From Bacteroidota bacterium (GTDB lineage: Bacteria; Bacteroidota; Bacteroidia; CAILMK01), in assembly GCA_013287095.1 (NCBI GenBank), contig JABDEJ010000052.1, positions 1 to 16,703 of the forward strand: DNA of 16,703 bases, written 5' to 3'. Below are positions 1 to 16,359 of the stretch, in pieces. Positions within the stretch are counted from its first letter, which is position 1, and each line of letters starts with the position of its first letter. Below the pieces are notes generated by a model that worked only from the letters and a program-made list of their open reading frames with translations, did no database searches and was not told where the DNA came from. The position numbers were made by a program, and so were the translations under genes.

Positions 1-527
1 GCATCCATTTTTACCACAAAGGCCCTTTCTGTACCACTTATGATGAAACCAACAGCTACAAATCCATGGTCAGGTGTTTCTTTTATATCATAAAACCAAT
101 CGCCATCCATGCCCGCAAATGTTTGGTGCCATGCTTCGGTTCCATTTGCATTCGCTTTTACAACGTAAGGCAAATTGGCAGCGCCCCCGGCCGCAATAAA
201 ACCGCCATCGGAGGTGGGATGCACAGTATAAAAATCATCATGCAACTGGCCGCCATAAGTTTGATACCATTCAACATTCCCGCTCTTGTCACATTTCTGT
301 ATAAATCCCTGGTCAGGTTCGGAAATACTCCCAATAGTGTTTCCGCCAAAAATATATCCCCCATCTGCAGTTCCTTCAAACGATACCAGGAAATTCCCGG
401 GATTTGTACCATAAAACTTTATTCCGGAGGAACTTGGATTTGGCGTCGGGTTTTCAGCCACCTTGGTGCAACCAGAACAAAGCACAAGCAAGCAAAAGAA
501 AGCTATTATGTCTTTTTTAATCCCCAT
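1..527 (-). CDS. Family A propeller-repeat lipoprotein A0 (3' end cut by window edge)
   Basis: About 175 codons are visible from the ATG at 527, with no stop before the window edge. The N-terminus (MGIKKDIIAFFCLLVLCSGC) is a lipoprotein signal; the Cys is followed by Thr-Lys. The linker NPSSSGIKFYG is shared with the other A proteins. Three blades follow: one with ADGGYIFGG and GFIQKCDKSGNVEW, one with SDGGFIAAG and YVVKANANGTEAW, and the start of a third with PDHGFVAVG. An in-frame TTG at 536 lines up with the start region of the other A copies, placing the lipobox Cys at codon 23. It follows B1 after an 83-nt gap and should be followed outside the window by its own B partner. Function unknown; probably anchored in the envelope. 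Confidence 0.88.
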   Translation of the reverse strand, partial: MGIKKDIIAFFCLLVLCSGCTKVAENPTPNPSSSGIKFYGTNPGNFLVSFEGTADGGYIFGGNTIGSISEPDQGFIQKCDKSGNVEWYQTYGGQLHDDFYTVHPTSDGGFIAAGGAANLPYVVKANANGTEAWHQTFAGMDGDWFYDIKETPDHGFVAVGFIISGTERAFVVKMD

Positions 528-610
528 CAATGACAAAGAAAATCAATATTTACCTTAACCCCAAATTTTGATGTGATTGGGAATTCGTGATTTGAGTAAT
601 TCGTAATTGA
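528..610 (-). promoter_or_regulatory. Inter-module gap upstream of A0 with conserved leader box
   Basis: Read on the minus strand, the gap after the B1 stop has AATTACGAATTAC-type sequence, then CAAAATTTGG (complement of 561-570), then a leader into the A0 start. The box ends 25 nt before the TTG at 536, the same spacing as in the other four A copies. It resembles a Bacteroidota -7 element (TAnnTTTG) but is not an exact match. Promoter function is inferred from conserved position only. Confidence 0.4.
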
Positions 611-1819
611 TTACAGGTTCCCGTTCGCGTCGGTCTTAACAAACAAAATCCTGGTGCCATTCAATCCTTTGCCAAACTGTGATGTACTCCCTATAAATGC
701 AAGGCTGCCATCGCTGAGTTCCAAAGCGGAATTAAAATTGCCATTGCCTTCTAAAGATGATGACGTCATCGCTTTGTCCCATAGCTTGTTCCCATTTGCA
801 TCAATTTTTAGGGCATAAGGTTGTGTATATGGCGTACCTGTGGATTGTATGCTGCCAACTACAATAAAACCTCCATCCTTACATGAGAGTATTTTTTCCG
901 GTTGTATAGTAGCAGTATTTACCAGGAATTCTTTTTGCCAGACTACGTTCAGGTTTTTATCAAACTTTACCACTACAGGGTAATATGTATTCGCGGTAGA
1001 TGAAAAACGCTCAGTCAATATAACCTCCCCTGAATCATTTGCAAATGTTTGCGATGCGAAAACATCAAAGGATGCCTGGTCACCTGTGTCAATAATGGTT
1101 GTAGTAGTTTTGCCCTTAGCTGGGATATTGGCCGTAAATAGTTTAAAAGGGTCAATTGATGTCCAGTTAACCCTGGAGTAAATATTTCCCGAAACATTAT
1201 ACGTTCCTGTTGAGGAAACATTGCTTATATAAAGCCCCAATATCTCACCTCCAATGCCTGCTGTTCTAAATGAATCGGTTCGCTGATAATTAAGGTTTTC
1301 GTCATAGACGTATATATCGTTTTCTGGATACCCTCCAAATTGGCTGCTGCACGCTGGCAGCATAAAATCTAAGCCCAAATGACTCATATCATCAAAAGTG
1401 AGGTTATTTGGATTAGGAATACTTACAAAATTAAGATTCCCTAAAGTATCAAATTTATATAAATTGGATGTGCCATGTGCCACAAAATGATAACCGTCAG
1501 CCAATAAGAACGCATTGGCATAGTAATTCTGAAAACCATATTGCTGCACGGCCCTGTTCCATGCGAGGTTCCCATATTTATCAGTCCGGGTCATTAACGG
1601 ACGTCCTGCGCCCTCACTTGATATAATGATAAAACCCCCGTCAGGCATTTGAGCCAGGCTCAGGGCTGTTACCGAAGAATCAGTCTGATAGGTTTTTAAA
1701 AACGTGGTGGAAGTCTGTATGCCAGGTCCCTTTTTGCAGGCAAGGGCAATACATAACAAGAGGATTGCCAGAACAAACCGCCTTAGTTTACTATTTGCTT
1801 TCATCAATGATCTTTCCAT
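611..1819 (-). CDS. Family B propeller-repeat lipoprotein B1
   Basis: 402 codons. I chose the ATG at 1819 (MERSLMKANSK) because it lies at the same place relative to the A1 stop as the starts of B2, B3 and B4; longer in-frame starts up to 1852 are not conserved. The signal peptide ends CIALAC (Cys28), followed by Lys-Lys. The mature protein starts with TFLKTYQTDSS and reads as seven propeller blades. The first (PDGGFIII), sixth (KDGGFIVVG with YALKIDANGNKLW) and seventh (SDGSLAFIG with LFVKTDANGNL, then stop) are clearest; the middle ones are degenerate. There is no enzyme motif and no type IX sorting domain. Function unknown; probably a periplasmic or surface lipoprotein that partners A1, with which it overlaps by 29 nt. 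Confidence 0.88.
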   Translation of the reverse strand: MERSLMKANSKLRRFVLAILLLCIALACKKGPGIQTSTTFLKTYQTDSSVTALSLAQMPDGGFIIISSEGAGRPLMTRTDKYGNLAWNRAVQQYGFQNYYANAFLLADGYHFVAHGTSNLYKFDTLGNLNFVSIPNPNNLTFDDMSHLGLDFMLPACSSQFGGYPENDIYVYDENLNYQRTDSFRTAGIGGEILGLYISNVSSTGTYNVSGNIYSRVNWTSIDPFKLFTANIPAKGKTTTTIIDTGDQASFDVFASQTFANDSGEVILTERFSSTANTYYPVVVKFDKNLNVVWQKEFLVNTATIQPEKILSCKDGGFIVVGSIQSTGTPYTQPYALKIDANGNKLWDKAMTSSSLEGNGNFNSALELSDGSLAFIGSTSQFGKGLNGTRILFVKTDANGNL

Positions 1820-3107
1820 TCTGGTCTGTTGTAAGAAATCCGAAAAAACCAACGCTATTTAAAAGCAGGGGCTGAGAATTGACCCCGAGAACAAAAGAAT
1901 TCCCAATGTTTGCCGCCCCCACTGCCTGGGAAGTAGAACCATTTACCTCCGTAAAACTTTCCTGGGTTTTGTTTCCATTCGCGTCCGTGTTCAATATCCA
2001 GCAGGTGCTATTGCCAGATCCATCCATAGCGCTCCCTGAAACCAATAATCCGCCATTCTGGTTGTTAATGGCATCATTAAAAGTAACGCCATTGCCCATT
2101 CCGGGAAAGGAGTTGTGCCACAGTATATTGCCATTAAAATCTATTTTAAAAATAGTCATGGACAAGCAAATCCCACAGGTAGCACAAGGAGGATAGCTTG
2201 GCAGGTCTTGTGGGGCCGACAACATGATAAAAATAAATCCATCTGGCCTACTGACAATTTTTTCAAAATTTGAAGGCGTAGTCGATAAATAATCCCAGGC
2301 AGTCGTCCCATTATTGCCATTGTTAACCCATGGCAATGAGCCAAAATTGGTATAGGTTTTTTGCAATTTTTTGGTTCCAGTGGGTGAAAAATAAGTAAAA
2401 GTCGGATAATTGACGCTTCCAGAATCGTCTCTTTCTGCCAGGCCGGCCACTGCTATTTCCCCATTTGGCCCAACGGCCAATGATGCGCCCAGGCTTTGGT
2501 TTTTGGGCAAGATGATTTGGTGGCCCCATAAACTATCCCCGTTCTGGTCAGTTTTTACAATATATACGGGGTCATCCATGCCAATAGGCGCATAAACAAA
2601 GCCTACTGCAACGAAACCATTGTCCGGCGTTTCGGTTACATCATAAAATTCCAAGGTATATTTATTGGCAAAAGGTTTTTGCCATATTAGATTGCCATAG
2701 GAATTCGTTTTTACAAGGTAGCCTGCCTGTGTAAAATTGTTGTTCGCCGCAAACGAATTTGAAGAGCCTGCCGCAATAAAACCGCCATCTGATGTAGAGC
2801 GTACTACCTGGAACACATCCTGATAAACCCCACCATAATTTTTATACCAGGCAAGGTTCCCGTTTTTATCGCATTTTTGAATAAAACCCTGCTGCCCCTG
2901 GTTCGCACTTGTACTTGTATAGCCACCAAACATATACCCACCATCGGCAGTTTCTTCAAAAGACCTGAGGATTTCTCCATAGCGGTCTCCATAAAGCTTT
3001 ATGCCTGAAGTACTAGGGTTCGCGGTTGATGATTCAGGCGCTTTGCTGCAGCCAAGGCATACCAAGAACAGGCAGATAAAAATACTTATGTTTTTTTTAA
3101 TCCCCAT
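1791..3107 (-). CDS. Family A propeller-repeat lipoprotein A1
   Basis: 438 codons from the ATG at 3107 (MGIKKNISIFICLFLVCLGC); an in-frame TTG at 3116 matches the start region of A2-A4. The lipoprotein Cys is followed by Ser-Lys. After the linker NPSTSGIKLYG come seven blades, including ADGGYMFGG with GFIQKCDKNGNLAW, SDGGFIAAG with YLVKTNSYGNLIW, PDNGFVAVG with YIVKTDQNGDSLW, and a last blade with GFLTTDQNGKIID. Blade 5 has an insert of about 13 residues containing CATCGIC (CxxCxxC), absent from the other A proteins. The C-terminal NGKII codons also carry the start of B1 in another frame. I see no catalytic motif. The fold is inferred from the repeat; the function is unknown. Confidence 0.88.
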   Translation of the reverse strand: MGIKKNISIFICLFLVCLGCSKAPESSTANPSTSGIKLYGDRYGEILRSFEETADGGYMFGGYTSTSANQGQQGFIQKCDKNGNLAWYKNYGGVYQDVFQVVRSTSDGGFIAAGSSNSFAANNNFTQAGYLVKTNSYGNLIWQKPFANKYTLEFYDVTETPDNGFVAVGFVYAPIGMDDPVYIVKTDQNGDSLWGHQIILPKNQSLGASLAVGPNGEIAVAGLAERDDSGSVNYPTFTYFSPTGTKKLQKTYTNFGSLPWVNNGNNGTTAWDYLSTTPSNFEKIVSRPDGFIFIMLSAPQDLPSYPPCATCGICLSMTIFKIDFNGNILWHNSFPGMGNGVTFNDAINNQNGGLLVSGSAMDGSGNSTCWILNTDANGNKTQESFTEVNGSTSQAVGAANIGNSFVLGVNSQPLLLNSVGFFGFLTTDQNGKIIDESK

Positions 3108-3233
3108 CAATGACAAAGAAAATCAATATTTATTTAAACGCCAAATAATTATGAAAAGAGTAAATAGTGAAATTGAATTCGTAATTCCTCCTCCTTCGCT
3201 AAAGCTTCGGCGGACAATGTAATTCGTAATTAT
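3108..3233 (-). promoter_or_regulatory. Inter-module gap upstream of A1: leader box, AT repeats and a 31-bp GC-rich insert
   Basis: The conserved box AATTATTTGG (complement of 3141-3150) ends 25 nt before the TTG at 3116. On the B2 side, AATTCGT-type repeats (3176-3187 and 3221-3231) are interrupted by a GC-richer block at 3188-3218, flanked on both sides by GTAATTC (3181-3187 and 3219-3225). The gap probably holds the A1 promoter or leader and a remnant of a small repeat element; both readings are inferred. Confidence 0.45.
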
Positions 3234-4451
3234 TTAGAGGTTCCCGTTCGCATCGGTTTTCACGAACAATATCCGGTTCCCGTTTTTCCCTTCACCAAAT
3301 GCATTCGTATAGCCAACAAACGCATACCCACCATCGGCAGTGGGTATTGCATAATTAAATTCGCCATTGTATTTTGTATCAAAAACCTTATCCCATACTT
3401 TATTTCCATTTGCATCAATCTTAAGCGCATATGGATAATTGACCGTATAACCGGTTTTTTGCATGCTTCCGCAAATGATAAATCCACCATCATTACACGG
3501 GGAAATACAATATTCGTTGACAGAGCCTTCTGCGGATGGAAATGTATTTTTCCAAGTGATATTCAGGTTATTATCTGCTTTTATGACAATGGGATATGAA
3601 TTATTACTATTCCAGTCCGTCCTCGCTCCAAGAAATATTTCAGATGAATCAGGACCTTTAATCTGGAATTCGGGATAATCTTCAATGCTTTGGTTGCCGC
3701 TATCAATGATGGTTTGGATCACCGGCCCTTTTTTGGGTATCCTCGCTATAAATAATTTTGCATTGTCATCATAGGTCCAATTGTTCCTCGTGTATTTATC
3801 CCCGCAGATATCGTATGCTCCTGAGCCAGTAACCCCATATACAAAATATTGCAGTACCTGCCCATTCAGCCTGGTATCATGAAATGAATCAATTCTCAGG
3901 TATTTTAAATTTTGATCAAATACAAGGGTGGAATTTCCTGAATCTCTCCAACCAATCCAACCACCACAATAAGGAACGACATAGTTGGAGCCGGTTTGAA
4001 AAATTGGGCCATTGAACCAATTGGTGCCACCACTGGAAACCTGATAAGCCTGTATAACATTACCAGAAGTATCAATATTGGTAATGTTTAATCCACCCTG
4101 GAGGTTGAAAAGGTTCGGGCCTAACTTAGTTGCCCACCAATGCGGACTGATTCCCGGGTTAAGGTTAAACCAGTATTCAGGCATTATTTTCATCCATTCC
4201 TGGTTCCCAGACTTATCGGTCCTGATCAAAACCGGTCTTCCCGCACCTTCACTGCCAATGATCAAAAAGCCGCCATCAGGCATTTGCTCTGTATATGTTG
4301 CCTGGGTAGCAGAATCAGCCTGGTAAGTCTTCATAAAAAAAGCTGAAGTGGATGGGGGGATTTCTTTTTTGCACGAAAGCATTAACCATCCAGCCATGGT
4401 TAAAAATAATAGCAAAAGCAGGCTATTTATTTGCATCAATGATCTTTCCAT
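3234..4451 (-). CDS. Family B propeller-repeat lipoprotein B2
   Basis: 405 codons from the ATG at 4451 (MERSLMQINS), which lies inside the end of A2 with a 29-nt overlap. A long hydrophobic stretch leads to GWLMLSC (Cys27), followed by Lys-Lys-Glu. The mature N-terminus (FFMKTYQADSA) and the following blade (PDGGFLIIGSEGAGRP with VLIRTDKSGNQEW) match the other B proteins. Seven blades can be drawn. The sixth (NDGGFIICG with YALKIDANGNKVW) and the last (ADGGYAFVG with LFVKTDANGNL, then stop) are clearest. Tryptophan is frequent in the second and third blades. No known catalytic residues are seen. Role unknown; the fixed pairing with A2 suggests a common complex or function. Confidence 0.88.
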   Translation of the reverse strand: MERSLMQINSLLLLLFLTMAGWLMLSCKKEIPPSTSAFFMKTYQADSATQATYTEQMPDGGFLIIGSEGAGRPVLIRTDKSGNQEWMKIMPEYWFNLNPGISPHWWATKLGPNLFNLQGGLNITNIDTSGNVIQAYQVSSGGTNWFNGPIFQTGSNYVVPYCGGWIGWRDSGNSTLVFDQNLKYLRIDSFHDTRLNGQVLQYFVYGVTGSGAYDICGDKYTRNNWTYDDNAKLFIARIPKKGPVIQTIIDSGNQSIEDYPEFQIKGPDSSEIFLGARTDWNSNNSYPIVIKADNNLNITWKNTFPSAEGSVNEYCISPCNDGGFIICGSMQKTGYTVNYPYALKIDANGNKVWDKVFDTKYNGEFNYAIPTADGGYAFVGYTNAFGEGKNGNRILFVKTDANGNL

Positions 4452-5718
4452 TTTGATCTATATTCATCAGCCCGAAATAAGTAGTCGTACTAGCGCCCGC
4501 AGAAACAAGATTAACCCCTACCGCAAAGTTATTGCCAATGGGTATGGCACCCGCTGCCCATATGTTATATTCGCTTACCGGTAAAAAATTCTCCCATAAT
4601 TTACTGCCGTTCGCATCCGTATTCAGAAGCCAGGTAGAGCTAATGCCGGCAGGATCAATAGTACCGCCTGATATTAACAAGCCGCCAACGGCATTATTGC
4701 TTATGCTATTCATGAATGCGCTTCCGTTTTTGCCAACAAAGTGCTGCTGTTTCCATTGAATATTACCTTTAAAATCCACTTTGAAAATCATAATGGAGTT
4801 TGGTCCCACTGCCTCAAGGTTCACCACTAAAATATATCCATCAGGCCTGCTTATTATTTTTTCAAGGCTCGAGGTAGTTGCATAATTATAATATCCTGAA
4901 TTGATTACAGAACCCCACATTTTATATTCCGGAAAAGGATTGTTTACATTCTGATAATCAAGGAACCCGCCGTTATTATTTAACAATATAAATGATGGGT
5001 AATGCGTGTTCAAATCCCCAACGGTATCAGATTTTACCACATATCCCGCTATAGCAATATCGTCATTTGCCCCTGTTGTTACTGATGTACCGAAGCTCTG
5101 GTAGGAATTAGGATATAATTGTTTCGGCGGCCACAATGTTTTGCCATTATTATCGACTTTTACAACATAGGTAAAATTATCATTTCCATTATCGTAAATC
5201 CCTACTGCCACAAACCCATGATCAGGCGTTTCCGTTACATCAAAAAAACGATCGTCATAAATACCTCCAAAAGTTCTTTGCCATAAGGTATCGCCATTCG
5301 CATTCATTTTTACCAGGTAACAGTCTTCATGGGCATCGCCCCGAATGGCACCATTGCCGTATGACTCGGTTGTTCCGGCAGCTATAAAACCGCCATCAGA
5401 TGTTACATGCACCACATTGAAAATGTCGAGGGATTTCCCTCCGTAAGTTTTTTTCCAAATCACATTGCCGTATTTGTCCGTCTTCTGTATAAAGCCCTGC
5501 TGGGCCATTCCTGCACTTGAGTTTGTGTATCCGCCAAACATAAACCCGCCGTCAGCAGTCGGTTCGAATGAGTTCAGGAAATAGCCATCCTGGTCTCCAT
5601 AAATCCGGATAGCAGAAGAAGTGGGATTGGCACTAGTATTTATCTCAGTTTTTTGGCACGATGAGAACAATGCAAAAGGTGCAATGCTCAAAAAAAGAAT
5701 ATTTTTACCCCAATCCAC
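4423..5718 (-). CDS. Family A propeller-repeat lipoprotein A2
   Basis: No ATG lies between the upstream stop and the lipobox, so translation must begin at a rare codon: GTG at 5718 (chosen) or TTG at 5724. The signal continues DWGKNILFLSIAPFALFSSC, with Cys followed by Gln-Lys. The linker NPTSSAIRIYG precedes seven blades. Blade 1 has ADGGFMFGG with GFIQKTDKYGNVIW, blade 2 SDGGFIAAG with YLVKMNANGDTLW, and blade 3 PDHGFVAVG with YVVKVDNNGKTLW. The last ends GLMNIDQNGKIID. The signal peptide and upstream 124 nt are nearly identical to those of A3, unlike the rest of the gene. Its 3' end overlaps B2 by 29 nt. Function unknown. Confidence 0.87.
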   Translation of the reverse strand: MDWGKNILFLSIAPFALFSSCQKTEINTSANPTSSAIRIYGDQDGYFLNSFEPTADGGFMFGGYTNSSAGMAQQGFIQKTDKYGNVIWKKTYGGKSLDIFNVVHVTSDGGFIAAGTTESYGNGAIRGDAHEDCYLVKMNANGDTLWQRTFGGIYDDRFFDVTETPDHGFVAVGIYDNGNDNFTYVVKVDNNGKTLWPPKQLYPNSYQSFGTSVTTGANDDIAIAGYVVKSDTVGDLNTHYPSFILLNNNGGFLDYQNVNNPFPEYKMWGSVINSGYYNYATTSSLEKIISRPDGYILVVNLEAVGPNSIMIFKVDFKGNIQWKQQHFVGKNGSAFMNSISNNAVGGLLISGGTIDPAGISSTWLLNTDANGSKLWENFLPVSEYNIWAAGAIPIGNNFAVGVNLVSAGASTTTYFGLMNIDQNGKIIDANK

Positions 5719-5839
5719 AGACAAAGAAAATCAATATTTTCCTTAACGCCAAATAATTATGGAAAGAGTGAATGGCAAATGGTGAATTGTAAATAGGGAA
5801 CATAGAATTGCAATTCGTAATTCTTAATTCTTAATTGAA
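5719..5839 (-). promoter_or_regulatory. Inter-module gap upstream of A2: leader box and heptamer repeats
   Basis: The complement of 5749-5758 is AATTATTTGG, 25 nt before the TTG at 5724. In this copy a TTTG lies 18 nt upstream of ATTATTTG, a spacing like that of Bacteroidota -33/-7 promoters. Two runs of 7-nt units follow on the plus strand: GTGAATG, GCAAATG, GTGAATT, GTAAATA (5768-5795), and AATTCGT, AATTCTT, AATTCTT (5812-5832) ending AATTGAATT next to the B3 stop. A promoter is likely but not proven. Confidence 0.45.
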
Positions 5840-7054
5840 TTAAAGGTTCCCGTTCGCATCGGTTTTGATGAACAATATCCTGGTGCCTAAAAGCTGGTTA
5901 CCAAAACCGTTGGATGATCCAAGGAATGCGTAACTACCATCATTTAGTTCTCTTGCGTAATACAAAACACTGTTCCCCGAAGCTGAAAATGTTTTTTCCC
6001 ATAATTTGTTCCCGTTTTGATCGATCCTTAAAACATAAGGCTGATTGTTTTGATAAGCCGTATTCCCTATTTGCCCCACCATAATTGCCCCACCATCACT
6101 GCATAAAGTCATATTGTATAGTCTTGATGAACTATTGCCGACAGGAAATTCATATTGCCAGGCAACATTCAGGTTTTTATCCATTTTTATGACCAATGGA
6201 TGCCACCGGGCTGGTCCATTATCTTCCCTGAGGCAAAGCAATAGAATTCCTGAATCACTTGTATTTGTTGACCATTGCACTCCGTCAGAGTATCTTTTAT
6301 CACCACTGTCAATAATGGTCTCAATAGCCTTGCCAGATGCGGAAATCTTAGCAGCGAAAATTTTGGTAGGATTGCCCCATGCCCAATATTTCCTCGGGAA
6401 TTTGGTGCCTGAGATAACATAATCGCCGGATAATGAAATACTATTCAAAAAGAATCCGAGGGTTTTACCTCCAAGCGTTGAATCCGGGAATGAATCTACC
6501 CTTTGCTGTTTAAGGTTATTATCAAAAACATAAATTTTGTTTACAGAAGGAGCGCCTGAAGCTTGGCCGTTACAAAAAGGGGCAATATAATTTTGGCCAT
6601 CCTGTATCATAACACCAAAATTCCAGGCGTTTATGCCCGCCGTATCGTTTATATTGCCAAATGTATCCAGTAAGGTAAACGTGCCATTGTATTGTGCCAG
6701 AAAATGACCTGGATCTTTGGTATTAAAGGCATTCCATGTACCTTGATTTGGGTTTAATGGGCCTGGGAAACGATATTTTTGAATCACTTTTTGCCATCTA
6801 AGGTTTCCGGATTTATCAGTCCGGATCAAAAGTGGCCGCCCAGCGCCTTCGGTTGATACAATAATAAATCCACCGTCAGCCATTTGCTCCAGGGTTACCG
6901 ATTCAGCTGAAGAATCGGTCTGATAGGTTTTAATAAAAGTGCCTGCTTTGGATACATTTGCTGCTTTTTTGCAGGAACTGAATTGGCAAAGTGCCAACAG
7001 TAAACAGATAAAAAGACGGTATTTATTATTTGCCATTCCCAAGGATGTTACCAT
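5840..7054 (-). CDS. Family B propeller-repeat lipoprotein B3
   Basis: 404 codons from the ATG at 7054 (MVTSLGMANNK), which overlaps the end of A3 by 29 nt. Another ATG at codon 7 is possible but breaks the conserved spacing. The signal peptide ends LCQFSSC (Cys28), followed by Lys-Lys. The mature chain opens TFIKTYQTDSS and continues with ADGGFIIVSTEGAGRP and LLIRTDKSGNLRW. A sixth-blade motif (SDGGAIMVG with YVLRIDQNGNKLW) and a final blade ending LFIKTDANGNL follow. The hydrophilic middle blades contain FDNNLKQQRVDSFPD, a stretch conserved in all B proteins (YDENLNYQRTDSFR in B1). Function unknown; envelope location inferred from the lipobox. Confidence 0.88.
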   Translation of the reverse strand: MVTSLGMANNKYRLFICLLLALCQFSSCKKAANVSKAGTFIKTYQTDSSAESVTLEQMADGGFIIVSTEGAGRPLLIRTDKSGNLRWQKVIQKYRFPGPLNPNQGTWNAFNTKDPGHFLAQYNGTFTLLDTFGNINDTAGINAWNFGVMIQDGQNYIAPFCNGQASGAPSVNKIYVFDNNLKQQRVDSFPDSTLGGKTLGFFLNSISLSGDYVISGTKFPRKYWAWGNPTKIFAAKISASGKAIETIIDSGDKRYSDGVQWSTNTSDSGILLLCLREDNGPARWHPLVIKMDKNLNVAWQYEFPVGNSSSRLYNMTLCSDGGAIMVGQIGNTAYQNNQPYVLRIDQNGNKLWEKTFSASGNSVLYYARELNDGSYAFLGSSNGFGNQLLGTRILFIKTDANGNL

Positions 7055-8306
7055 TTTGATCTGTTGTTAAAAACCCAAAAAAATTGGCGATATTCAAATG
7101 GGTTGAGCTTAAATTAACACCCATAGCATAAGAGCTGCCTACAGGTATTACCCCGGCCGCAAATGCATTAAATCCTTGCACCGGTATATCGGTTTCCCAT
7201 AATCTATTCCCGTTTGGGTCCGTGTTCAGCATCCAGCCATGGTTTTTCCCGGATTCATCAACTGTAACGCCTGAAATGAGCAAGCCCCCTTGAGGATTAT
7301 TGACGGCATCATTCATAGAAGCAGTGCTAAGTCCCTTAAATTGTTGGTTCCATAAGATATTGCCGGTAATATCTACTTTAAAAAGCATCAATGAATTTTG
7401 TGGTGCGGATAGGTTTACTGCAAAAATATATCCATCGGGCTGACTTATTATTTTCTCGGCACGAAAAGAATTTGCATAAGCAGGAACCAGTCCGCCCCAG
7501 CTTTTATATTCTGGAAAAGGAAGCGCACTTGTGATGCCTGACTTGTCAAGGGGGACTCCAGTGGGCGACAACAGGATAAAAGATGGATAATCAATTCCCT
7601 GATCAGTAGCTAATGTGGATTTGACGATATAACCCGCCACTGCTATGTCTCCATTCGCACCCACGGCAACAGAGGCCCCCAGGGCGGAGAAAAACCCCTG
7701 ATAATATTCCCTGGTCCACAATTTATTTCCGTTCTGATCTGTTTTTACGATATACACGCAATCACCATAAGCAGGATCATCTATAAACCCAACGGCCACG
7801 AACCCCTTGTCAGGCGTTTCAGCAACGTCAAAAAACTGATCAGCATAAATACCCCCAAAAGTTTTTTGCCAGAGAGTATCACCATTGGCATCTGTTTTCA
7901 CCATGTACGCATCCCAATAATAATCCTGGCGCGTTGCACCGTGGCCATAAGAGTTCGTAGCGCCAACCCCGATGAAACCACCGTCTGATGTGGCGTGTAC
8001 TTCCATGAACAGGTCTTCCAGTGGTCCACCATAATTTTTGTACCAGACCACATTCCCGTTCTTGTCTGTTTTTTGGATAAAGCCCTGCCCGGCATCGCTT
8101 GGGCTATTGTTTGTGGCCCCGCCAAACATATAGCCACCATCGGGCGTTGCCTCAAAAGAAAACAGGAGGTTACCATCATTATTGCCATAAAAGCGGATGG
8201 CAGAGGAAGTAGGATTTGCAGTGGTATCTACGGTCGCTTTTTGACACGATGAGAACAATGCAAAAGATGCAATGCTCAAAAAAAGAATATTTTTACCCCA
8301 ATCCAC
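7026..8306 (-). CDS. Family A propeller-repeat lipoprotein A3
   Basis: As in A2, only GTG at 8306 (chosen) or TTG at 8312 can start this gene; an in-frame TAA lies upstream and there is no ATG before the lipobox. The signal DWGKNILFLSIASFALFSSC differs from A2 by one residue. The linker NPTSSAIRFYG is followed by seven blades, for example PDGGYMFGG with GFIQKTDKNGNVVW, SDGGFIGVG with YMVKTDANGDTLW, and PDKGFVAVG with YIVKTDQNGNKLW. The final blade ends GFLTTDQNGNILGNGK. Its terminal NGNIL codons contain the ATG of B3. No enzymatic motif or C-terminal sorting domain is seen. Function unknown. Confidence 0.87.
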   Translation of the reverse strand: MDWGKNILFLSIASFALFSSCQKATVDTTANPTSSAIRFYGNNDGNLLFSFEATPDGGYMFGGATNNSPSDAGQGFIQKTDKNGNVVWYKNYGGPLEDLFMEVHATSDGGFIGVGATNSYGHGATRQDYYWDAYMVKTDANGDTLWQKTFGGIYADQFFDVAETPDKGFVAVGFIDDPAYGDCVYIVKTDQNGNKLWTREYYQGFFSALGASVAVGANGDIAVAGYIVKSTLATDQGIDYPSFILLSPTGVPLDKSGITSALPFPEYKSWGGLVPAYANSFRAEKIISQPDGYIFAVNLSAPQNSLMLFKVDITGNILWNQQFKGLSTASMNDAVNNPQGGLLISGVTVDESGKNHGWMLNTDPNGNRLWETDIPVQGFNAFAAGVIPVGSSYAMGVNLSSTHLNIANFFGFLTTDQNGNILGNGK

Positions 8307-8426
8307 AGACAAAGAAAACCAATATTTATCTTAATGCCAAATAATTATGAAAAGAGTGAATGGTAAATAGTAAATGGTAAATGGGGCTCCGCATTCGTAA
8401 TTCCTAATTCTTAATTCTTAATTGAA
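8307..8426 (-). promoter_or_regulatory. Inter-module gap upstream of A3: leader box and heptamer repeats
   Basis: The complement of 8337-8346 is AATTATTTGG, 25 nt before the TTG at 8312. On the plus strand, 8356-8383 is four 7-nt units (GTGAATG, GTAAATA, GTAAATG, GTAAATG). 8393-8420 has AATTC(C/T)T units that run into the B4 stop. The layout matches the A2 gap but copy number and sequence differ, as expected of repeats that change quickly. Confidence 0.45.
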
Positions 8427-9650
8427 TTAAAGGTTCCCGTTCGCATCCAGCTTTACAAACAAAACCCCACTCCCGTTTTTACCATTGCCAAACGAGTTGG
8501 TATAGCCAATGATGGCGTATCCTCCGTCTGCTGTTTTTATACCCGTAAAAAACTGACCGCTGACTGAGGATATTGTCTTATCCCATTGTTTATTGCCATT
8601 AGCGTCAATTTTCATGACATAGGGCTGGCTGTTAACTGCTGCTGGCGTCCCAATATACCCGCACAAGAGATAACCACCGTCACTGCATTGAGAGGCATCT
8701 CCGAAAACCAATGCACTTTTATCCACATGATATTCTTTTTCCCAGCTAAGTTTAGCATTATTATCAAATTTCATAACAACAGGATAAAAGGTATTTGTTA
8801 AGTTATCCTGGCGGGAAACAGGAACTAATATTCCTGAATCAGCGGTTTGAAGAGGCCATTGTGTGATATCGGAATGTCTGAGGTCCCCGGTGTCAACCAT
8901 GGTTTCAATGATTGGGCTTCCGGGTTTTATAATAGCGGCATAAACCTTATGATTATCCCTGAAGGTCCAGTTTTTTCTTGGGAATACTTCTCCGCTTATT
9001 TTTATACTTCCGTTAGGTTTATAATCATAGACAAAAAAACCGATATTCTTGCCTCCAATATCAACATCAGGAAATGTAGAAGCCTGAAGGTTTTTAAGAT
9101 TTTTGTCATACGCATAAACATAATTATTGGATGGACTACTGGAACTTAGCCCATCACATACGCCCACAAAATAATTTGTAGCGTTGGCCAATAAGGGACT
9201 GATAGTATATGTCGAAAGCCCGGGATAAGTACTTAGCAAATTGGTTTGGTTCAAAATATTCCCAAGGTTATCAGTTTGCGTAAAAACAGCCCCGCCTTGC
9301 ATGATAAGGTGGTATGGATCAGGATCATTGTAAATATCCCATTCCCCGGCATAATAAAAGCACAAATAATTATTTATCGTTTTCTGCCAAAGCTTGTTGC
9401 CATATTGATCTGTTTGAATCAATACAGGACGCCCAGCTCCCTCGTCGGCACCAAGGAGAAAATCACCATTCGGGAATTGTTCCACACTCACAGCCTGGGT
9501 GGAAGAATCCGTGGCATAAGTCTTAATAAAAGTCTTAGCAGTGGATGGAGCAGTATTAGTCCCTTTCTGACATGATCCCAAAATGGATACCATTAATGCG
9601 ATCCTCAAAATGGTTTTTATACTATTTACTGCTTTCAAGAATTTTTCCAT
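8427..9650 (-). CDS. Family B propeller-repeat lipoprotein B4
   Basis: 407 codons from the ATG at 9650 (MEKFLKAVNS), inside the end of A4 with the same 29-nt overlap as the other pairs. The signal peptide has Lys and Arg near the start and a lipobox SILGSC (Cys27), followed by Gln-Lys. TFIKTYATDSS opens the mature chain. Then come PNGDFLLGADEGAGRP with VLIQTDQYGNKLW, degenerate middle blades including YDKNLKNLQASTFPD, a sixth blade (SDGGYLLCG with YVMKIDANGNKQW) and a last blade (ADGGYAIIG with LFVKLDANGNL). It ends right after this blade, as all B proteins do. Unknown function; probably acts with A4 in the envelope. Confidence 0.88.
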   Translation of the reverse strand: MEKFLKAVNSIKTILRIALMVSILGSCQKGTNTAPSTAKTFIKTYATDSSTQAVSVEQFPNGDFLLGADEGAGRPVLIQTDQYGNKLWQKTINNYLCFYYAGEWDIYNDPDPYHLIMQGGAVFTQTDNLGNILNQTNLLSTYPGLSTYTISPLLANATNYFVGVCDGLSSSSPSNNYVYAYDKNLKNLQASTFPDVDIGGKNIGFFVYDYKPNGSIKISGEVFPRKNWTFRDNHKVYAAIIKPGSPIIETMVDTGDLRHSDITQWPLQTADSGILVPVSRQDNLTNTFYPVVMKFDNNAKLSWEKEYHVDKSALVFGDASQCSDGGYLLCGYIGTPAAVNSQPYVMKIDANGNKQWDKTISSVSGQFFTGIKTADGGYAIIGYTNSFGNGKNGSGVLFVKLDANGNL

Positions 9651-10896
9651 TTTGGTCTGTAAATAATAGGCCGAAAAGATCTGGCTGAAAGGTATTAACC
9701 GGGCTAAGGTTCAACCCCAAAGCATAGGTATTCCCCATTGCTACAACACCGGAAGCCCAGAAGGTATAACCGCTGATCGGAACATGAGACTCCCATATTT
9801 CATTGCCGCTTGCGTCCGTGCACAGGAGCAATGTATGATGGATGTTAGATGTATCGGTTGTTCTACCTGATATTAAAAAGCCGCCGGTAGAATTTATAGT
9901 AATATCATTCAATGCGCATCCTGCCAAACCGGTAAAATGCTTGCTCCATTTTACATTTCCGCTAATATCTACCTTAAAAAGTTCAATTGAATTTACGGCC
10001 CCTGATATATTTACTGCAAAAATAAACCCATCAGAAACCGCGATTATTTTTTCGGGATTATAAATGATTTCGTACTCAGGAATTTGTGTTCTCAGATCGG
10101 GCATGTAGCCAAAGCTGGAATAAATCTGAAAGGGTGAATTCAAATATATACCCTTTGGGTTCAATAGTATAAAAGCGGGATAATGAATGTACTGCTCAGA
10201 TGACAGATCAGATTTAACATGATAGCCAGCTATGCCAATATTTCCGTTTGATGCTACACAAACGGAGGCGCCAAAACTAAAATAATCATTTGGGAATAAC
10301 GTATGAGACCATAAAAGATTACCATTCTGGTCTACTTTCACCACATAAGTTGAATTGCCATGAGATACAGTGTTATAAATGAACCCAACCGCTACAAACC
10401 CATTGTCAGGTGTTTCGGCCACATCAAAAAATCGGTCAACATAATTTCCACCAAAAGTTTTTTGCCAGACTACCGTTCCATTTCCATCTGTTTTCACGAG
10501 GTAACAATCAGCATTATAGTCCTTTAATCCATTTCCATAAGAGGTGGTGCCTCCCGCAGCAATAAAACCCCCATCAGAAGTAGGATGCACGGCATTAAAC
10601 AAGTCCCAGTTTGCTCCTCCGTATTGTTTGTACCATTTTATGTTCCCGTTCTTATCCGTCTTTTGAATAAAACCTTTTGAGGTCTGGACTGAATCAGAAA
10701 GGGTATAGCCGCCAAACATGATCCCGCCATCAGCCGTTGGCTGACATGACATCAGAAAATTGCCATACGAATTTCCATAAATCTTTACACCAGAGGTGGA
10801 AGAGTTGGCAGCTTGATTTACCGGAACTTTGGAGCAGGAGAGGCATAAAAACCCCAGACCTATCGTGTAAAATAATATCTGTTTTCTAAAAACCAC
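9622..10896 (-). CDS. Family A propeller-repeat lipoprotein A4 (first gene of the array)
   Basis: An in-frame TAG lies just upstream of TTG 10902. Only that TTG or GTG 10896 (chosen) can start it; there is no ATG before the lipobox. The signal VFRKQILFYTIGLGFLCLSC has two positive residues and a Cys followed by Ser-Lys. The linker NSSTSGVKIYG leads into seven blades: ADGGIMFGG with GFIQKTDKNGNIKW, SDGGFIAAG with YLVKTDGNGTVVW, PDNGFVAVG with YVVKVDQNGNLLW, then more degenerate ones, and a last blade GLLFTDQNGKILESSK. It lies at the promoter-proximal end of the array, 78 nt downstream of the DUF1304 gene on the same strand. Function unknown. Confidence 0.87.
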   Translation of the reverse strand: MVFRKQILFYTIGLGFLCLSCSKVPVNQAANSSTSGVKIYGNSYGNFLMSCQPTADGGIMFGGYTLSDSVQTSKGFIQKTDKNGNIKWYKQYGGANWDLFNAVHPTSDGGFIAAGGTTSYGNGLKDYNADCYLVKTDGNGTVVWQKTFGGNYVDRFFDVAETPDNGFVAVGFIYNTVSHGNSTYVVKVDQNGNLLWSHTLFPNDYFSFGASVCVASNGNIGIAGYHVKSDLSSEQYIHYPAFILLNPKGIYLNSPFQIYSSFGYMPDLRTQIPEYEIIYNPEKIIAVSDGFIFAVNISGAVNSIELFKVDISGNVKWSKHFTGLAGCALNDITINSTGGFLISGRTTDTSNIHHTLLLCTDASGNEIWESHVPISGYTFWASGVVAMGNTYALGLNLSPVNTFQPDLFGLLFTDQNGKILESSK

Positions 10897-10902
10897 AGAC
10901 AA

Positions 10903-10980
10903 AGAAAACTATTATTTTGCTAAGCACCAAATAATTGAGAAAGAGTAGATGGCATTTTGGAAATTGGGAATATCCTTTTT
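10903..10980 (-). promoter_or_regulatory. Leader and possible promoter of the lipoprotein array (A4)
   Basis: The complement of 10927-10936 is AATTATTTGG, 25 nt before TTG 10902, as in all other A leaders. The heptamer repeats of the other gaps are absent, so they belong to the B-to-A junctions and not to the A leader. No clear terminator hairpin separates the DUF1304 gene from A4, so readthrough from it cannot be excluded. Confidence 0.4.
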
Positions 10981-11343
10981 TCAGACAGTAATAATCAATA
11001 TCAATGCAATTATCGCCGGCAATGCCTGAATAAAAAATATTCTTCTGGTAACCGTAACAGCGCCATAAATCCCAGCCACAGCAACACAGATCAAAAAGAA
11101 CGTCCCCACATTCTTAGCCCAAACCATATCCGAAATAAACAAAGACCATATCAAACCGGTTGCCAGAAACCCATTATATAATCCCTGGTTCCCGGCCATA
11201 ACTTTTGTGCTTTCAAAAGATTCTTTGGTTAACGATTTGAAAACCTTGGGACCACGGGTAGTCCATGCAAACATTTCTAAGTACAGAAAGTAAAGGTGCA
11301 AAAATGCGATGAATCCAATGAGGCATTTGATGAGAATAAGCAT
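10981..11343 (-). CDS. DUF1304 family small integral membrane protein
   Basis: 120 codons, ATG start at 11343. Four hydrophobic segments are visible, at about residues 3-23, 50-70, 75-94 and 98-119. The sequence FIAFLHLYFLYLEMFAWTT at the start and NQGLYNGFLATGL before the second segment are typical of DUF1304 membrane proteins as I know them. The length also fits that family (about 115-125 aa). The biochemical role of the family is not established. It diverges from the DoxX-like gene; the gap holds a perfect palindrome. It shares its strand with the lipoprotein array but has no evident functional link. Confidence 0.85.
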   Translation of the reverse strand: MLILIKCLIGFIAFLHLYFLYLEMFAWTTRGPKVFKSLTKESFESTKVMAGNQGLYNGFLATGLIWSLFISDMVWAKNVGTFFLICVAVAGIYGAVTVTRRIFFIQALPAIIALILIITV

Positions 11344-11383
11344 ATTGATGATATTTGAAAGACAAATATAGGGGATTGAATTT

Positions 11384-11416
11384 AAACCTATAAGGTTTTA
11401 AAAACCTTATAGGTTT
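11384..11416. repeat. Perfect palindrome with 16-bp arms between divergent genes
   Basis: The left arm AAACCTATAAGGTTTT (11384-11399) and right arm AAAACCTTATAGGTTT (11401-11416) are exact reverse complements around a single A. It lies between two divergently transcribed genes, so it is not at a gene end. It could be an operator, a cruciform, or one copy of a dispersed intergenic palindrome family; the sequence alone does not decide. Confidence 0.9.
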
Positions 11417-11443
11417 GTGCGATATTTGATCTTCCAACCTTTG
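11414..11443 (+). promoter_or_regulatory. Possible promoter of the DoxX-like gene
   Basis: TTTG at 11414-11417 and AACCTTTG at 11436-11443 are 18 nt apart, close to the Bacteroidota -33 TTTG / -7 TAnnTTTG layout; the -7 box has one mismatch. The -33 box overlaps the end of the palindrome, so a factor bound there could control it. The start codon is 40 nt downstream. Confidence 0.3.
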
Positions 11444-11483
11444 CCAACCTATCATCGTCTATGTTAATTCATATCAGCCTGCC

Positions 11484-12113
11484 ATGAAGCCAAGCAAAGA
11501 TAAAATAAACGAATACTTCGTCCTCACCATCAGGTTCTTACTGGCTCTTGTTTTCTTGAATTATGGGATTGCAAAGCTTGTAGGTGGTCAGTTTGGAATA
11601 TCAGCAAAGGATGCAATGCTACCGGTAAAAGACCTTGGCCTTTTTAAACTTTTCTGGTACTTAATGGACCAAAACCCTTTTAAGGTTTTTATTGGGGTAT
11701 TCCAGATCATTACCGCTGTATTTATATTGATAAACAGGGCGATGCTGATAGGTTTATTCTTGTTTCTCGTCATTGTTGTTAACATCCTGATAATGGACAT
11801 TACCTATCTGAAAATGCCTGGATTTTATGATATTTTGACATGGTATATCCTACTGGATATCTATGTGTTATATTATTACCGGGTTCGGTTTATCAATGCC
11901 TGGACAATTCTCACGGCAAAGTTTGTGTTTGTAAATAAATATTCATGGTGGGTATATCTGACACTTCCGCTTGCTGCAATCCTGCTTGGAGGTATTTTGA
12001 TATTTGTTCCGAGGGTATTATATCTCCTTATCACAAATCCTCATGAATTGTCAGTTGATTTAAATTTGATGGTGAATGATGTGAAATTGGCTGTCAGTAA
12101 GGTTCGTAATTGA
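11484..12113 (+). CDS. DoxX-like integral membrane protein
   Basis: 209 codons from the ATG at 11484. About five hydrophobic segments are visible, at residues 13-32, 63-83, 86-108, 113-131 and 154-178. The first (RFLLALVFLNYGIAKLVGGQFG) resembles the first helix of DoxX-type proteins, and the aromatic-rich fourth segment is followed by RVRFINAW. Overall length and helix order fit a DoxX-like protein, but I see no signature that fixes a function, so the family call is moderate. The stop is 53 nt before the start of the dehydrogenase gene on the same strand, so the two may be co-transcribed, although the second has its own promoter-like box. Alternative: an unclassified membrane protein. Confidence 0.6.
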   Translation: MKPSKDKINEYFVLTIRFLLALVFLNYGIAKLVGGQFGISAKDAMLPVKDLGLFKLFWYLMDQNPFKVFIGVFQIITAVFILINRAMLIGLFLFLVIVVNILIMDITYLKMPGFYDILTWYILLDIYVLYYYRVRFINAWTILTAKFVFVNKYSWWVYLTLPLAAILLGGILIFVPRVLYLLITNPHELSVDLNLMVNDVKLAVSKVRN

Positions 12114-12154
12114 AATCCTTTATTTCCGTTAACTCCATTACTGCCGACTGTTCC

Positions 12155-12162
12155 TATCTTTG
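12155..12162 (+). promoter_or_regulatory. -7 promoter box TATCTTTG just upstream of the dehydrogenase
   Basis: TATCTTTG is an exact TAnnTTTG match, ending 4 nt before the ATG at 12167. Transcription starting about 7 nt downstream would give a leaderless or nearly leaderless mRNA. No convincing -33 TTTG is seen at the right distance. Confidence 0.4.
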
Positions 12163-12166
12163 CCGC

Positions 12167-12979
12167 ATGGAGTTTAAAAATAAAACCGTCATTATTACCG
12201 GGGCGTCATCTGGCATCGGTCAGGCATGTGCGCTGGCCTTTGCAAAGGAAGGATGTAATCTTGCCCTGGCTGCGAGGAATCTCGAAAACCTTGCACATAC
12301 GGCATCAGAGTGTGAAAAACTGGGCATAAAAGTTATTGTTGTCCAGACAGATGTGGCGATAGAAGAAGATTGCAAAAACCTGATCGATCAAACAATTAGA
12401 ACTTTTGGAGGAATAGATATACTCATCAATAATGCCGGCATGACTATGAGAGCTTTGTTTTCAGAAATGGATCTTTCTGTTTTGAAGCGCGTCATGGATG
12501 TGAATTTTTGGGGAACTGTTTATTGTACCAAATATGCACTACCATCTTTGCTTAAATCAAAGGGTTCTGTAGTTGGTATTTCCTCAGTTGCGGGATACAA
12601 AGGTTTGCCGGGAAGAACCGGTTATTCAGCATCTAAATTTGCGATGAATGGGTTCCTGGAAGTATTGAGGATAGAAAACCTCAAAACCGGGCTTCATGTA
12701 TTGATCTGTGCCCCCGGATATACTGCCTCCAATATCCGCAATACGGCACTTACCAAGGATGGAAGCATTCAATCTGAATCACCCCTGGATGAAAAGAAAC
12801 TTATGCAACCTGAAGAAGTTGCTTCTTCCATTGTGAATGCCATCAAAAAAAGAAAGAATGTATTAATCCTGACAACATTGGGCAAGTTTACGGTGTTATT
12901 GAATAAGTTCTTTCCGAAGTTTATGGATATGATGGTTTACAACACCATAGCCAAAGAAAAGGATAGTCCGTTTAAATAG
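12167..12979 (+). CDS. Short-chain dehydrogenase/reductase (SDR, classical type)
   Basis: 270 codons from the ATG at 12167. A longer reading frame back to a TTG at 12110 exists, but its added 19 residues are not SDR-like and overlap the previous gene. Classical SDR motifs are all present: the TGASSGIG nucleotide-binding loop (residues 11-18), NNAG (88-91), the tetrad Asn113, catalytic Ser140 (in ISSVAG), and YSASK with Tyr153 and Lys157. CAPGYTASN follows, as expected after the active site. Arg37 after the second strand may favour NADP(H). It oxidises or reduces an unknown alcohol or carbonyl substrate in the cytoplasm. The basic, hydrophobic C-terminus (KFTVLLNKFFPKFMDMMVY) suggests membrane association, as in some lipid-acting SDRs. 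Confidence 0.9.
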   Translation: MEFKNKTVIITGASSGIGQACALAFAKEGCNLALAARNLENLAHTASECEKLGIKVIVVQTDVAIEEDCKNLIDQTIRTFGGIDILINNAGMTMRALFSEMDLSVLKRVMDVNFWGTVYCTKYALPSLLKSKGSVVGISSVAGYKGLPGRTGYSASKFAMNGFLEVLRIENLKTGLHVLICAPGYTASNIRNTALTKDGSIQSESPLDEKKLMQPEEVASSIVNAIKKRKNVLILTTLGKFTVLLNKFFPKFMDMMVYNTIAKEKDSPFK

Positions 12980-13004
12980 AAAATGAAATAAAGAAATAAA
13001 AAGA

Positions 13005-13087
13005 AACCGCAAAGAGCGCAAAGGCTTCACAGAGTACGCAAAGAACAACTCTGTGTTCTTTGCGATACCTCTGCGTTCTCTGCGGTT
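13005..13087. repeat. Large imperfect palindrome of CGCAAAG-type units upstream of argS
   Basis: The inner stem CGCAAAGAACA (13037-13047) pairs perfectly with 13054-13064 around a 6-nt loop. The outer arms 13005-13024 and 13068-13087 match at 17 of 20 positions. The arms are built from repeated CGCAAAG / CGCAGAG units. It lies 22-105 nt upstream of argS, so it could be in the argS leader or end the dehydrogenase transcript. Confidence 0.8.
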
Positions 13088-13108
13088 ACCTTTTGAAGCT
13101 ATATTATA

Positions 13109-14896: not shown

Positions 14897-14918
14897 AACT
14901 ATTTAGGTCTTCATTTCG

Positions 14919-14926
14919 TATATTTG
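14919..14926 (+). promoter_or_regulatory. -7 promoter-like box TATATTTG upstream of msrA
   Basis: An exact TAnnTTTG match 23 nt after the argS stop. No good -33 TTTG is seen. If used, the msrA leader would be about 80 nt long and contain the following inverted repeat. Confidence 0.3.
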
Positions 14927-14934
14927 TTTTGAAC

Positions 14935-14992
14935 TTTGCGTCTTAGAGCCTTAGTGGCAAGTATTAGAGCCACAAAGTCACAAAGACGCTAA
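14935..14992. repeat. Imperfect inverted repeat between argS and msrA
   Basis: The 24-nt arms 14935-14958 and 14969-14992 match at 19 of 24 positions as reverse complements, separated by AAGTATTAGA. The arms contain GCGTCTT and GTGGC blocks. It could form a hairpin at the 3' end of the argS transcript or in the msrA leader. It differs in sequence from the palindrome upstream of argS, though both contain ACAAAG/CGCAAAG-like units. Confidence 0.7.
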
Positions 14993-15014
14993 AAGGATAA
15001 AAATTAATATCAAA

Positions 15015-16308: not shown

Positions 16309-16359
16309 GATTGGATTCGAGCGCAATAATAGCCTTTTTTGCCTGTGTCTGGCTCGTAA

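What the first reader, a model, noticed from the sequence alone, without database searches (positions are those of the whole stretch)
1..10902. Tandem array of paired beta-propeller lipoproteins, duplicated as a two-gene unit
Nine minus-strand lipoprotein genes alternate strictly between families A and B. Every A is closer to the other A proteins than to its neighbouring B, so the pair is the unit of amplification. Keeping the pairing through several duplications and considerable divergence implies that A and B work together, for example as a heteromeric surface complex, with the copies providing different specificities. I know of no named system with this layout.
Basis: partly seen in the sequence, partly recalled or inferred. 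Interest (0 to 1): 0.75.

Follow-up and report, generated by a model that had tools for sequence, protein, structure and literature searches.

The report
Paired beta-propeller lipoprotein gene array
A Bacteroidota bacterium carries repeated pairs of genes for two seven-bladed propeller lipoproteins that copy together as a pair; in some relatives such pairs sit beside genes for two outer-membrane barrels and sometimes an inner-membrane ATPase, which suggests, without proof, that they are recognition parts of an undescribed signalling system spanning the cell envelope.

Summary
Confirmed: nine minus-strand lipoprotein ORFs alternate A and B (last A cut by the window edge); identities A-A 45-58%, B-B 37-47%, A-B 25-35%. 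A-then-B pairs recur in G001, G004, G049 and G296; with the window, 14 of 14 DNA-read pairs. A and B trees agree (seven close pairs: r=0.706, 23 of 5040 permutations). A shared promoter-like element precedes all five A genes; G001 has two copies, both at A genes. Looser propeller homologues do occur alone (27 of 27 loci checked).

New: in G004, G049 and G296 the pairs adjoin a tandem pair of outer-membrane barrel proteins with weak TPR matches (C, D). C/D homologues go with an nSTAND1-TM-WD40 NTPase (25 of 27 genomes, within 7 kb in 22); simpler relatives form an operon nSTAND1, barrel, propeller lipoprotein.

Reading (inferred): A and B are paired input subunits of an undescribed trans-envelope STAND-type system. 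Surface exposure is not supported (0 of 59 rows carry the known export signal). The window itself holds no C, D or nSTAND1.

The parts
9622..10896 (-). A1, beta-propeller lipoprotein, family A
   Evidence: ORF; start inferred; A HMM 598 vs B 86 bits (this row helped build the A HMM)
8427..9650 (-). B1, beta-propeller lipoprotein, family B
   Evidence: B HMM 542 vs A 78 bits (row in the B HMM)
7026..8306 (-). A2, family A; AlphaFold2 model, seven blades
5840..7054 (-). B2, family B; AlphaFold2 model, seven blades
4423..5718 (-). A3, family A; closest to L001 A 9995-11299 (60%)
3234..4451 (-). B3, family B; closest to L001 B 11271-12503 (54%)
1791..3107 (-). A4, family A; closest to L001 A 12648-13907 (61%)
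611..1819 (-). B4, family B; closest to L001 B 13876-15087 (67%)
3..527 (-). A5, family A, truncated by the window edge; the array continues outside
   Evidence: full-length relatives P0151, P0152
10898..10931 (-). promoter-like element before A1 (2 mismatches)
8308..8341 (-). promoter-like element before A2 (1 mismatch)
5720..5753 (-). promoter-like element before A3 (1 mismatch)
3112..3145 (-). promoter-like element before A4 (0 mismatches)
532..565 (-). promoter-like element before A5 (2 mismatches)

Best explanation
The array is a multi-copy set of A-B lipoprotein pairs, each with its own copy of a shared promoter-like element and with overlapping genes. SHOWN: A and B are distinct propeller proteins that duplicate as a pair; in three other genomes such pairs adjoin a tandem pair of outer-membrane barrel proteins (C, D) whose family is tied in position and phyletic pattern to an nSTAND1-TM-WD40 protein. 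INFERRED: A and B are lipid-anchored in the outer membrane, probably facing the periplasm, and dock with C and D through their N-terminal, TPR-like part; the assembly binds ligands on the variable face of the propellers and passes the signal to the WD40 domain that the inner-membrane nSTAND1 protein is predicted to hold in the periplasm; its cytoplasmic NTPase then switches, in the two-barrel variant perhaps with a neighbouring class III nucleotide cyclase as output. Extra A-B pairs would be alternative input subunits. The simpler form has one barrel and one propeller; barrel and propeller would have become two in step.
For: Pair unit. A-B next to C-D: G296 C-D-A-B on one strand with gaps -4, 8, -4 nt; G049 C-D convergent with three A-B pairs; G004 A-B-A-B convergent with C-D; G001 C-C-D near a diverged pair. 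Barrel match over the Pfam cut-off in 4 of 8 C/D proteins. nSTAND1 in 25 of 27 C/D genomes against 53 of 368 others, Fisher 1.8e-17; within 7 kb in 22 of 27. With all candidates scored, 8 of 9 genomes with tandem C-D have exactly one nSTAND1. Single-barrel stretches: nSTAND1 then barrel on one strand in 12 of 12; barrel-lipoprotein gaps -11 to 11 nt in 10 of 10 where the contig goes on, the lipoprotein being A/B-like in seven and PKD+Kelch in three. C is one clade (13 rows, 100/99) and D one (12 rows, 99/98). Hydrophobic segment between NTPase and WD40 with more K/R on the NTPase side in 19 of 19. WD40 matches in 10 of 10 nSTAND1 proteins scanned. Class III cyclase beside nSTAND1 in 7 of 8 two-barrel genomes that have nSTAND1, in 0 of 12 single-barrel stretches. 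b-c and d-a loops more variable than a-b and c-d loops in A (2.47 vs 1.20 bits) and B (1.98 vs 1.20). B preference (B over A score) in 14 of 14 second genes, in none of the propeller ORFs of the 27 unpaired loci.
Against: The window and L001 carry no C, D, nSTAND1 or cyclase near the array; the window's genome is not held, so these are inferred from G001, where they lie on other contigs. In the distant genomes the A assignment is weak: unpaired generic propellers score as well or better with the A profile (about 120-270 bits) than A of G296 (158), G004 (182-242) or G049 (53-99). TPR matches of C/D are all below cut-off, and 4 of 8 C/D proteins have no barrel match over cut-off (L042 D, L044 C and D none at all). 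In L050-L053 the second lipoproteins are only weakly B-like as a group (96.7% over 175 columns; A profile 92.0%); in L056 and L057 one of the two neighbours is not recognised as a propeller; L055 has no pair before the contig end; L054 shows fragments. 3 of 10 single-barrel lipoproteins (L058, L059, L064) do carry a C-X-K-(D/E)2 start (read), so facing may differ between variants. The G004 nSTAND1 neighbour is a histidine kinase cut by the contig end, not a cyclase. The Fisher test treats related genomes as independent. No interaction, ligand, location or activity was tested.
Confidence: 0.45

Rival explanations
1. A and B form a heteromeric binding complex (lectin- or adhesin-like) that works on its own; the C/D/nSTAND1 neighbourhood in other lineages is a later or looser association.
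For: The window array and L001 stand alone among other genes; propeller lectins are among the fold matches; variable loops on one face fit ligand binding; generic propellers of this repeat type are common and unpaired.
Against: All three other genomes with A-B pairs have C-D adjacent; no export signal for the surface in A or B.
Confidence: 0.28
2. The arrangement is a conflict or defence system: the envelope parts sense an invader and the nSTAND1 switch triggers a response.
For: STAND NTPases, including nSTAND1, occur in predicted conflict systems (passages of PMC8195603 and PMC10907252); copy-number expansion and loop diversity.
Against: PADLOC models gave only weak hits around the P-loop to 4 of 5 nSTAND1 proteins and none to A2, B2 or one C; among the neighbours that were scanned I saw a cyclase, histidine kinase, SpoIIE and T9SS proteins, no toxic effector domain.
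Confidence: 0.12
3. The propellers are enzymes or substrate-binding lipoproteins like the CylK propeller, and the pair catalyses a reaction or serves nutrient uptake.
Against: CylK's active site needs Arg105 of its N-terminal domain (passages of PMC8916777); A and B have no such domain. Three single-barrel loci have a Kelch propeller in the same slot, which argues for binding rather than one chemistry.
Confidence: 0.08
4. Ordinary tandem duplication kept by recombination between repeats, with no functional need for pairing.
For: Upstream regions look homogenised within a genome (two G001 copies identical over 48 nt; window A2/A3 94% over 100 columns around the start).
Against: Pairs also stand singly (L015, G296) and in distant lineages, with 13 of 14 A-B junctions overlapping.
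Confidence: 0.07

Closest known systems
SBBP / delta-60-repeat beta-propeller proteins (PF17164, TIGR02608; LipL53-type lipoproteins NF047494)
   Same: Same kind of repeat; many PF17164 proteins among the weaker hits of A and B, weak NF047494 or TIGR02608 hits of A2 and the G296 pair.
   Different: A and B stay far below the cut-offs; unpaired relatives of this kind are common.
CylK C-terminal propeller (PDB 7ron, 7fh6)
   Same: Best sequence and fold match of A, best fold match of B.
   Different: CylK is a two-domain enzyme with its active site between both domains (passages); A and B lack the N-terminal domain and carry a lipobox.
STAND NTPase sensor systems (nSTAND1, NACHT, AP-ATPase)
   Same: nSTAND1 NTPase followed by WD40 repeats.
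   Different: Here a hydrophobic segment lies between NTPase and WD40 and the gene partners are outer-membrane barrels and lipoproteins; the passages seen of PMC7159879, PMC8195603 and PMC10907252 describe none with such partners.
SusC/SusD and BtuB/BtuG pairs of Bacteroidota (recalled, not tested)
   Same: Many paralogous two-gene units of an outer-membrane barrel and a lipoprotein; BtuG is a propeller lipoprotein.
   Different: C/D are about 340-aa proteins of the OMP_b-brl type, not TonB-dependent transporters.
PorE of the type IX secretion system (recalled, not tested)
   Same: TPR and WD40-like parts in the periplasm.
   Different: One lipoprotein with an OmpA-like domain; here the parts lie on separate proteins.

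Membership tests
delta-60 / SBBP propeller families (Pfam, NF047494) | Score over the curated cut-off | tested here: not met
   0 of 9 window ORFs over any Pfam cut-off; NF047494 29.5 bits against a cut-off of 400 for A2, nothing for B2
Seven-bladed beta-propeller fold | Seven four-stranded blades with closure between N and C termini | tested here: met
CylK-type alkylating enzymes | N-terminal Ca-binding domain with Arg105 forming the active site with the propeller | tested here: not met
   In the models the first propeller strand is at residue 39 or 40; CylK matches begin at its residues 248-251; active site from PMC8916777 passages
Surface-exposed Bacteroidota lipoproteins | Export signal C-X-K-(D/E)2 (defined in Capnocytophaga; other genera differ) | tested here: not met
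   0 of 39 A and 0 of 20 B; K at +3 is common (35 of 39, 18 of 20) but not followed by two acids (PMC5080379 passages)
Lipoproteins | Signal peptide with lipobox cysteine | tested here: met
   rule of mine: found in 39 of 42 A and 20 of 24 B rows (one A protein counted twice); no signal-peptide predictor was at hand
nSTAND1 / barrel / propeller-lipoprotein system (proposed here) | A-B pair next to C-D | tested here: inconclusive
   met in G004, G049, G296; not met in the window or L001; in G001 C-D lies near another pair
nSTAND1 / barrel / propeller-lipoprotein system (proposed here) | nSTAND1-TM-WD40 in the same genome | not testable with these tools
   window genome not held; the closest genome, G001, has exactly one
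nSTAND1 / barrel / propeller-lipoprotein system (proposed here) | TPR part in the barrel proteins | tested here: inconclusive
   TPR models hit 4 of 8 C/D proteins, all below cut-off
PADLOC-listed defence systems | Match of A, B or C to a model | tested here: not met
   no hit for A2, B2 or one C at 0.001; nSTAND1 only weak P-loop hits

The most novel reading that the evidence does not exclude
A-B pairs are exchangeable sensor cartridges of an undescribed trans-envelope STAND switch: outer-membrane TPR-like barrels (C, D), each matched to one propeller (A, B), hand a signal to a WD40 domain held in the periplasm by an inner-membrane nSTAND1 NTPase, with a class III cyclase as output in the two-barrel variant. 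Barrel and propeller duplicated in step, and the A-B cassette then multiplied under one shared promoter to widen what the cell can recognise.
Probability: 0.32. Interest if true: 0.88.

Novelty: new variant of a known kind. Interest (0 to 1): 0.6.

Why it matters
In the passages I saw, STAND switches are discussed as conflict and immunity proteins. A conserved operon that joins an nSTAND1 protein with a predicted periplasmic WD40 part to outer-membrane barrels and lipid-anchored propellers would be a way to carry a signal across both membranes of Bacteroidota, and the A-B arrays would show how its input side diversifies. It is directly testable: three genes in the simple form, and one-to-one or two-to-two subunits that predict specific interfaces.

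Tried and rejected

Literature: ten searches of the held open-licence library showed, in titles and abstract beginnings, no description of the A-B layout or of an nSTAND1/barrel/propeller operon; subscription papers are not in it, so this is not proof of absence. Five papers were seen in passages only.

Protein-database contigs: the tables give only contig lengths, so adjacency could not be read. By length, five A/B subtype matches recur on shared contigs (23517 twice, 12438, 15134, 5934), in line with the pairing. Against it: contig 23517 lists six A and three B, and contigs 8978 and 25835 three A each and no B; whether B is absent or missed by the word filter is open.

The diverged pairs of L016 and L017 were first called A'B'. 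With the close-family profiles their second genes are not assigned to B (29 vs 55 and 51 vs 56 bits); with wider profiles they are weakly B (67 vs 54, 78 vs 62). They are inside the 11-pair Mantel test, whose r is driven by deep splits, so the 7-pair test is the fair one. L002 and L003 hold longer propeller proteins without A-B pairs; L002 has two of about 610-630 aa in tandem. At class level 75 of 395 genomes have an A-profile hit at 1e-30, but outside G001, G004 and G296 the best stretch covers at most about 57% of the model; I looked at the 27 such loci returned: some have ORFs of A size (for example L096, 399 aa, with a lipobox-like start), none has a B-type neighbour. Four B hits (G035, G070, G072, G222) lie in ORFs of 526-1063 aa and were set aside. 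Searches scored only the best 4 or 5 candidates per genome, so copy numbers there are lower bounds; G049 A genes stay under the 1e-30 line. The two genomes G002 and G003 have no A or B at 1e-30 and no nSTAND1; whether they were in the C/D sample is not told.

Rows: alignments A6/A7 and the trees use hand-picked rows (in one search, 31 of 120 listed A hits and 12 of 120 listed B hits, plus DNA-read rows). Window, L001 and L015-A rows helped build the profiles that score them; rows of G004, G049, G296 and L015-B did not. The tree leaves out barrels under 300 or over 400 aa and repeated stretches. Searches hold one G004 A protein twice. The profile 'Cyc' was built from four proteins that Pfam confirmed.
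Full report
WHAT IS THERE. The window holds nine minus-strand ORFs (eight of about 400-440 aa, the ninth cut by the window edge) that alternate A and B. Global identities are 45-58% among the four full A, 37-47% among the four B and 25-35% between A and B. Profiles separate them (A: 578-616 vs 72-86 bits; B: 542-595 vs 72-103), though these rows helped build the profiles. The ORFs overlap by 29 nt at 4 of 4 A-B junctions. Every A is preceded by a promoter-like 34-bp element (5 matches, 0 expected). In G001, the closest genome found (ArgRS fragments 84-88% identical; 46-65% in the ten other genomes of the order with a match, none in G008), the element occurs twice in 2.8 Mb with up to three mismatches, both times at A genes; the third L001 pair and the L015 pair lack it. 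The two G001 copies are identical over 48 nt although their A proteins are 48% identical, and they differ from the orthologous window copies at 6 and 8 of 34 positions, while window copies 2-5 differ from each other at 2-4. Copy 1 does not fit: it differs by 7-8 from the other window copies and by 6 from G001. So most, not all, promoters look homogenised within a genome while the proteins diverge; A2 and A3 share 94% over 100 columns around the start and 42-71% further on.

THE PAIR IS THE UNIT. L001 carries three further pairs with one T9SS protein before the third, and a fourth pair is on another contig (L015). Module 3 of the window matches L001 module 1 in both genes (A 60%, B 54%), module 4 matches L001 module 2 (A 61%, B 67%). 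Distances in separately built A and B trees correlate: r=0.976 over 11 pairs (permutation p 5e-5) and r=0.706 over the seven closest (23 of 5040 exact permutations). Forcing mismatched orthologues together is rejected strongly in both trees. The place of module 2 differs between the trees, not significantly (p 0.20). In 395 class genomes, B hits in ORFs of B size are found in four (G001, G004, G049, G296), 10 copies, each with an A-like gene before it; the 7 A hits covering over 80% of the model each have a B (with 12, 24, 65-67). Of 14 DNA-read pairs 14 run A then B by profile preference; 13 overlap and one has a 9-nt gap (coordinates). Looser homologues behave otherwise: 27 of 27 other A-profile loci checked have no B-type neighbour. 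They also score about 120-270 bits with the A profile, as much as or more than the A genes of G296, G004 and G049 (53-242 bits), so in distant genomes it is the B gene and the arrangement, not the A score, that mark a pair: B preference is seen in 14 of 14 second genes and in none of the propeller ORFs of those 27 loci.

A LARGER SYSTEM. Next to the pairs in other genomes stands a tandem pair of 335-370-aa proteins, C and D. Of eight tested, four pass the cut-off of an outer-membrane barrel family; TPR matches are below cut-off; the rest are linked by alignment. G296 has C, D, A, B on one strand with gaps -4, 8 and -4 nt; G049 has nSTAND1, C, D and then three convergent A-B pairs; G004 has A-B-A-B convergent with C-D; G001 has C, C, D near a diverged pair. 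A C/D profile hits 27 of 395 class genomes, nSTAND1 (PF20703) 78 of 395, both 25, Fisher 1.8e-17 (relatedness not corrected); the two lie within 7 kb in 22 of the 27. With all candidates scored, 8 of 9 genomes with tandem C-D have exactly one nSTAND1. WD40 matches follow in 10 of 10 scanned. In 19 of 19 proteins the strongest hydrophobic segment after residue 300 lies between NTPase and WD40 with more K/R on the NTPase side, 15 of 16 have that segment only, L065 one more at the ORF start. So the WD40 part is predicted to be periplasmic.

SIMPLE AND PAIRED FORMS. In twelve stretches with one barrel the order is nSTAND1, barrel and, where the contig goes on (10), a lipoprotein: same strand, nSTAND1-barrel gaps -59 to 78 nt, barrel-lipoprotein gaps -11 to 11 nt in 10 of 10. 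That lipoprotein is A/B-like in seven and PKD+Kelch in three; no second A/B-profile hit over 40 bits was seen in these stretches. In L067 the nSTAND1 is split over two ORFs. In stretches with two barrels propellers tend to come in pairs: both members are assigned in G004, G049 and G296 C22, both are propeller-like in L017; in L050-L053 the first is A-like and the second a lipoprotein with weak B-profile similarity; in L056 and L057 one member is not recognised; L054 has fragments; L055 none before the contig end. C and D are each one clade (13 rows 100/99; 12 rows 99/98), single barrels apart from both. I read this as barrel and propeller becoming two in step, one propeller per barrel. A class III cyclase lies beside nSTAND1 in 7 of 8 two-barrel genomes that have nSTAND1 (in G001 a response-regulator cyclase, second gene away after a GAF histidine kinase; in G004 such a kinase is cut by the contig end) and in none of the 12 single-barrel stretches.

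MECHANISM. Shown: pairing, co-duplication, promoter-like element, predicted fold, neighbourhood and phyletic link. Inferred: periplasmic face (0 of 39 A and 0 of 20 B have the known export signal; but 3 of 10 single-barrel lipoproteins do, read), docking of A/B with C/D, ligand recognition by the variable face, passage to the WD40 part, NTPase switch and cyclase output. The chief gap is that the window has none of C, D, nSTAND1, and its genome is not held.

NOVELTY. Pfam, PADLOC and NCBIfam scans of these proteins name no such system. Passages of PMC7159879, PMC8195603 and PMC10907252 describe STAND systems but, as far as seen, no barrel or propeller-lipoprotein partner. I rate the array a new variant of a known kind (STAND-type sensing), with the bolder reading in the section on the most novel reading.

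Noticed in passing
L061, L062, L065 (gene after the barrel): The propeller slot is filled by PKD+Kelch lipoproteins instead of A/B-like ones, so the slot seems to want a propeller of any family.
   Followed up: partly
L060, L063, L065, L067, L068 after the propeller gene: Large proteins follow the three-gene operon; the three scanned (L060, L065, L067) end in a T9SS sorting tail.
   Followed up: partly
window 532-565, 3112-3145, 5720-5753, 8308-8341, 10898-10931: Likely start codons lie within a few bases of the -7-like TTTG of the element, which suggests near-leaderless mRNAs (promoter consensus recalled).
   Followed up: no
window intergenic stretches between B and next A: Short AATTAAGAATTACGAATT-like and ATTTACCATTTAC-like stretches between modules, possible recombination sites for array growth.
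   Followed up: no
window 15679-16326; L049 6553-7170: A WbqC-like gene lies on the same contig as the array in the window and as A-B-A-B/C-D in G004, with different neighbours.
   Followed up: partly
G134 contig C27, 83.6-104.2 kb (L051, L052): Two C-D pairs, four lipoprotein pairs (first member A-like), one nSTAND1 and two class III cyclases lie within about 21 kb.
   Followed up: partly
L016 4579-7126: A diverged propeller-lipoprotein pair in G001 with no barrel or nSTAND1 hit in the 12 kb read.
   Followed up: partly
L064 6650-7903: A SpoIIE-type phosphatase follows the three-gene operon in G222.
   Followed up: no
L096 868-2067: A lone 399-aa propeller with lipobox-like start in G308 scores 272 bits with the A profile and has no B-type neighbour in the 3.6 kb held.
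   Followed up: partly
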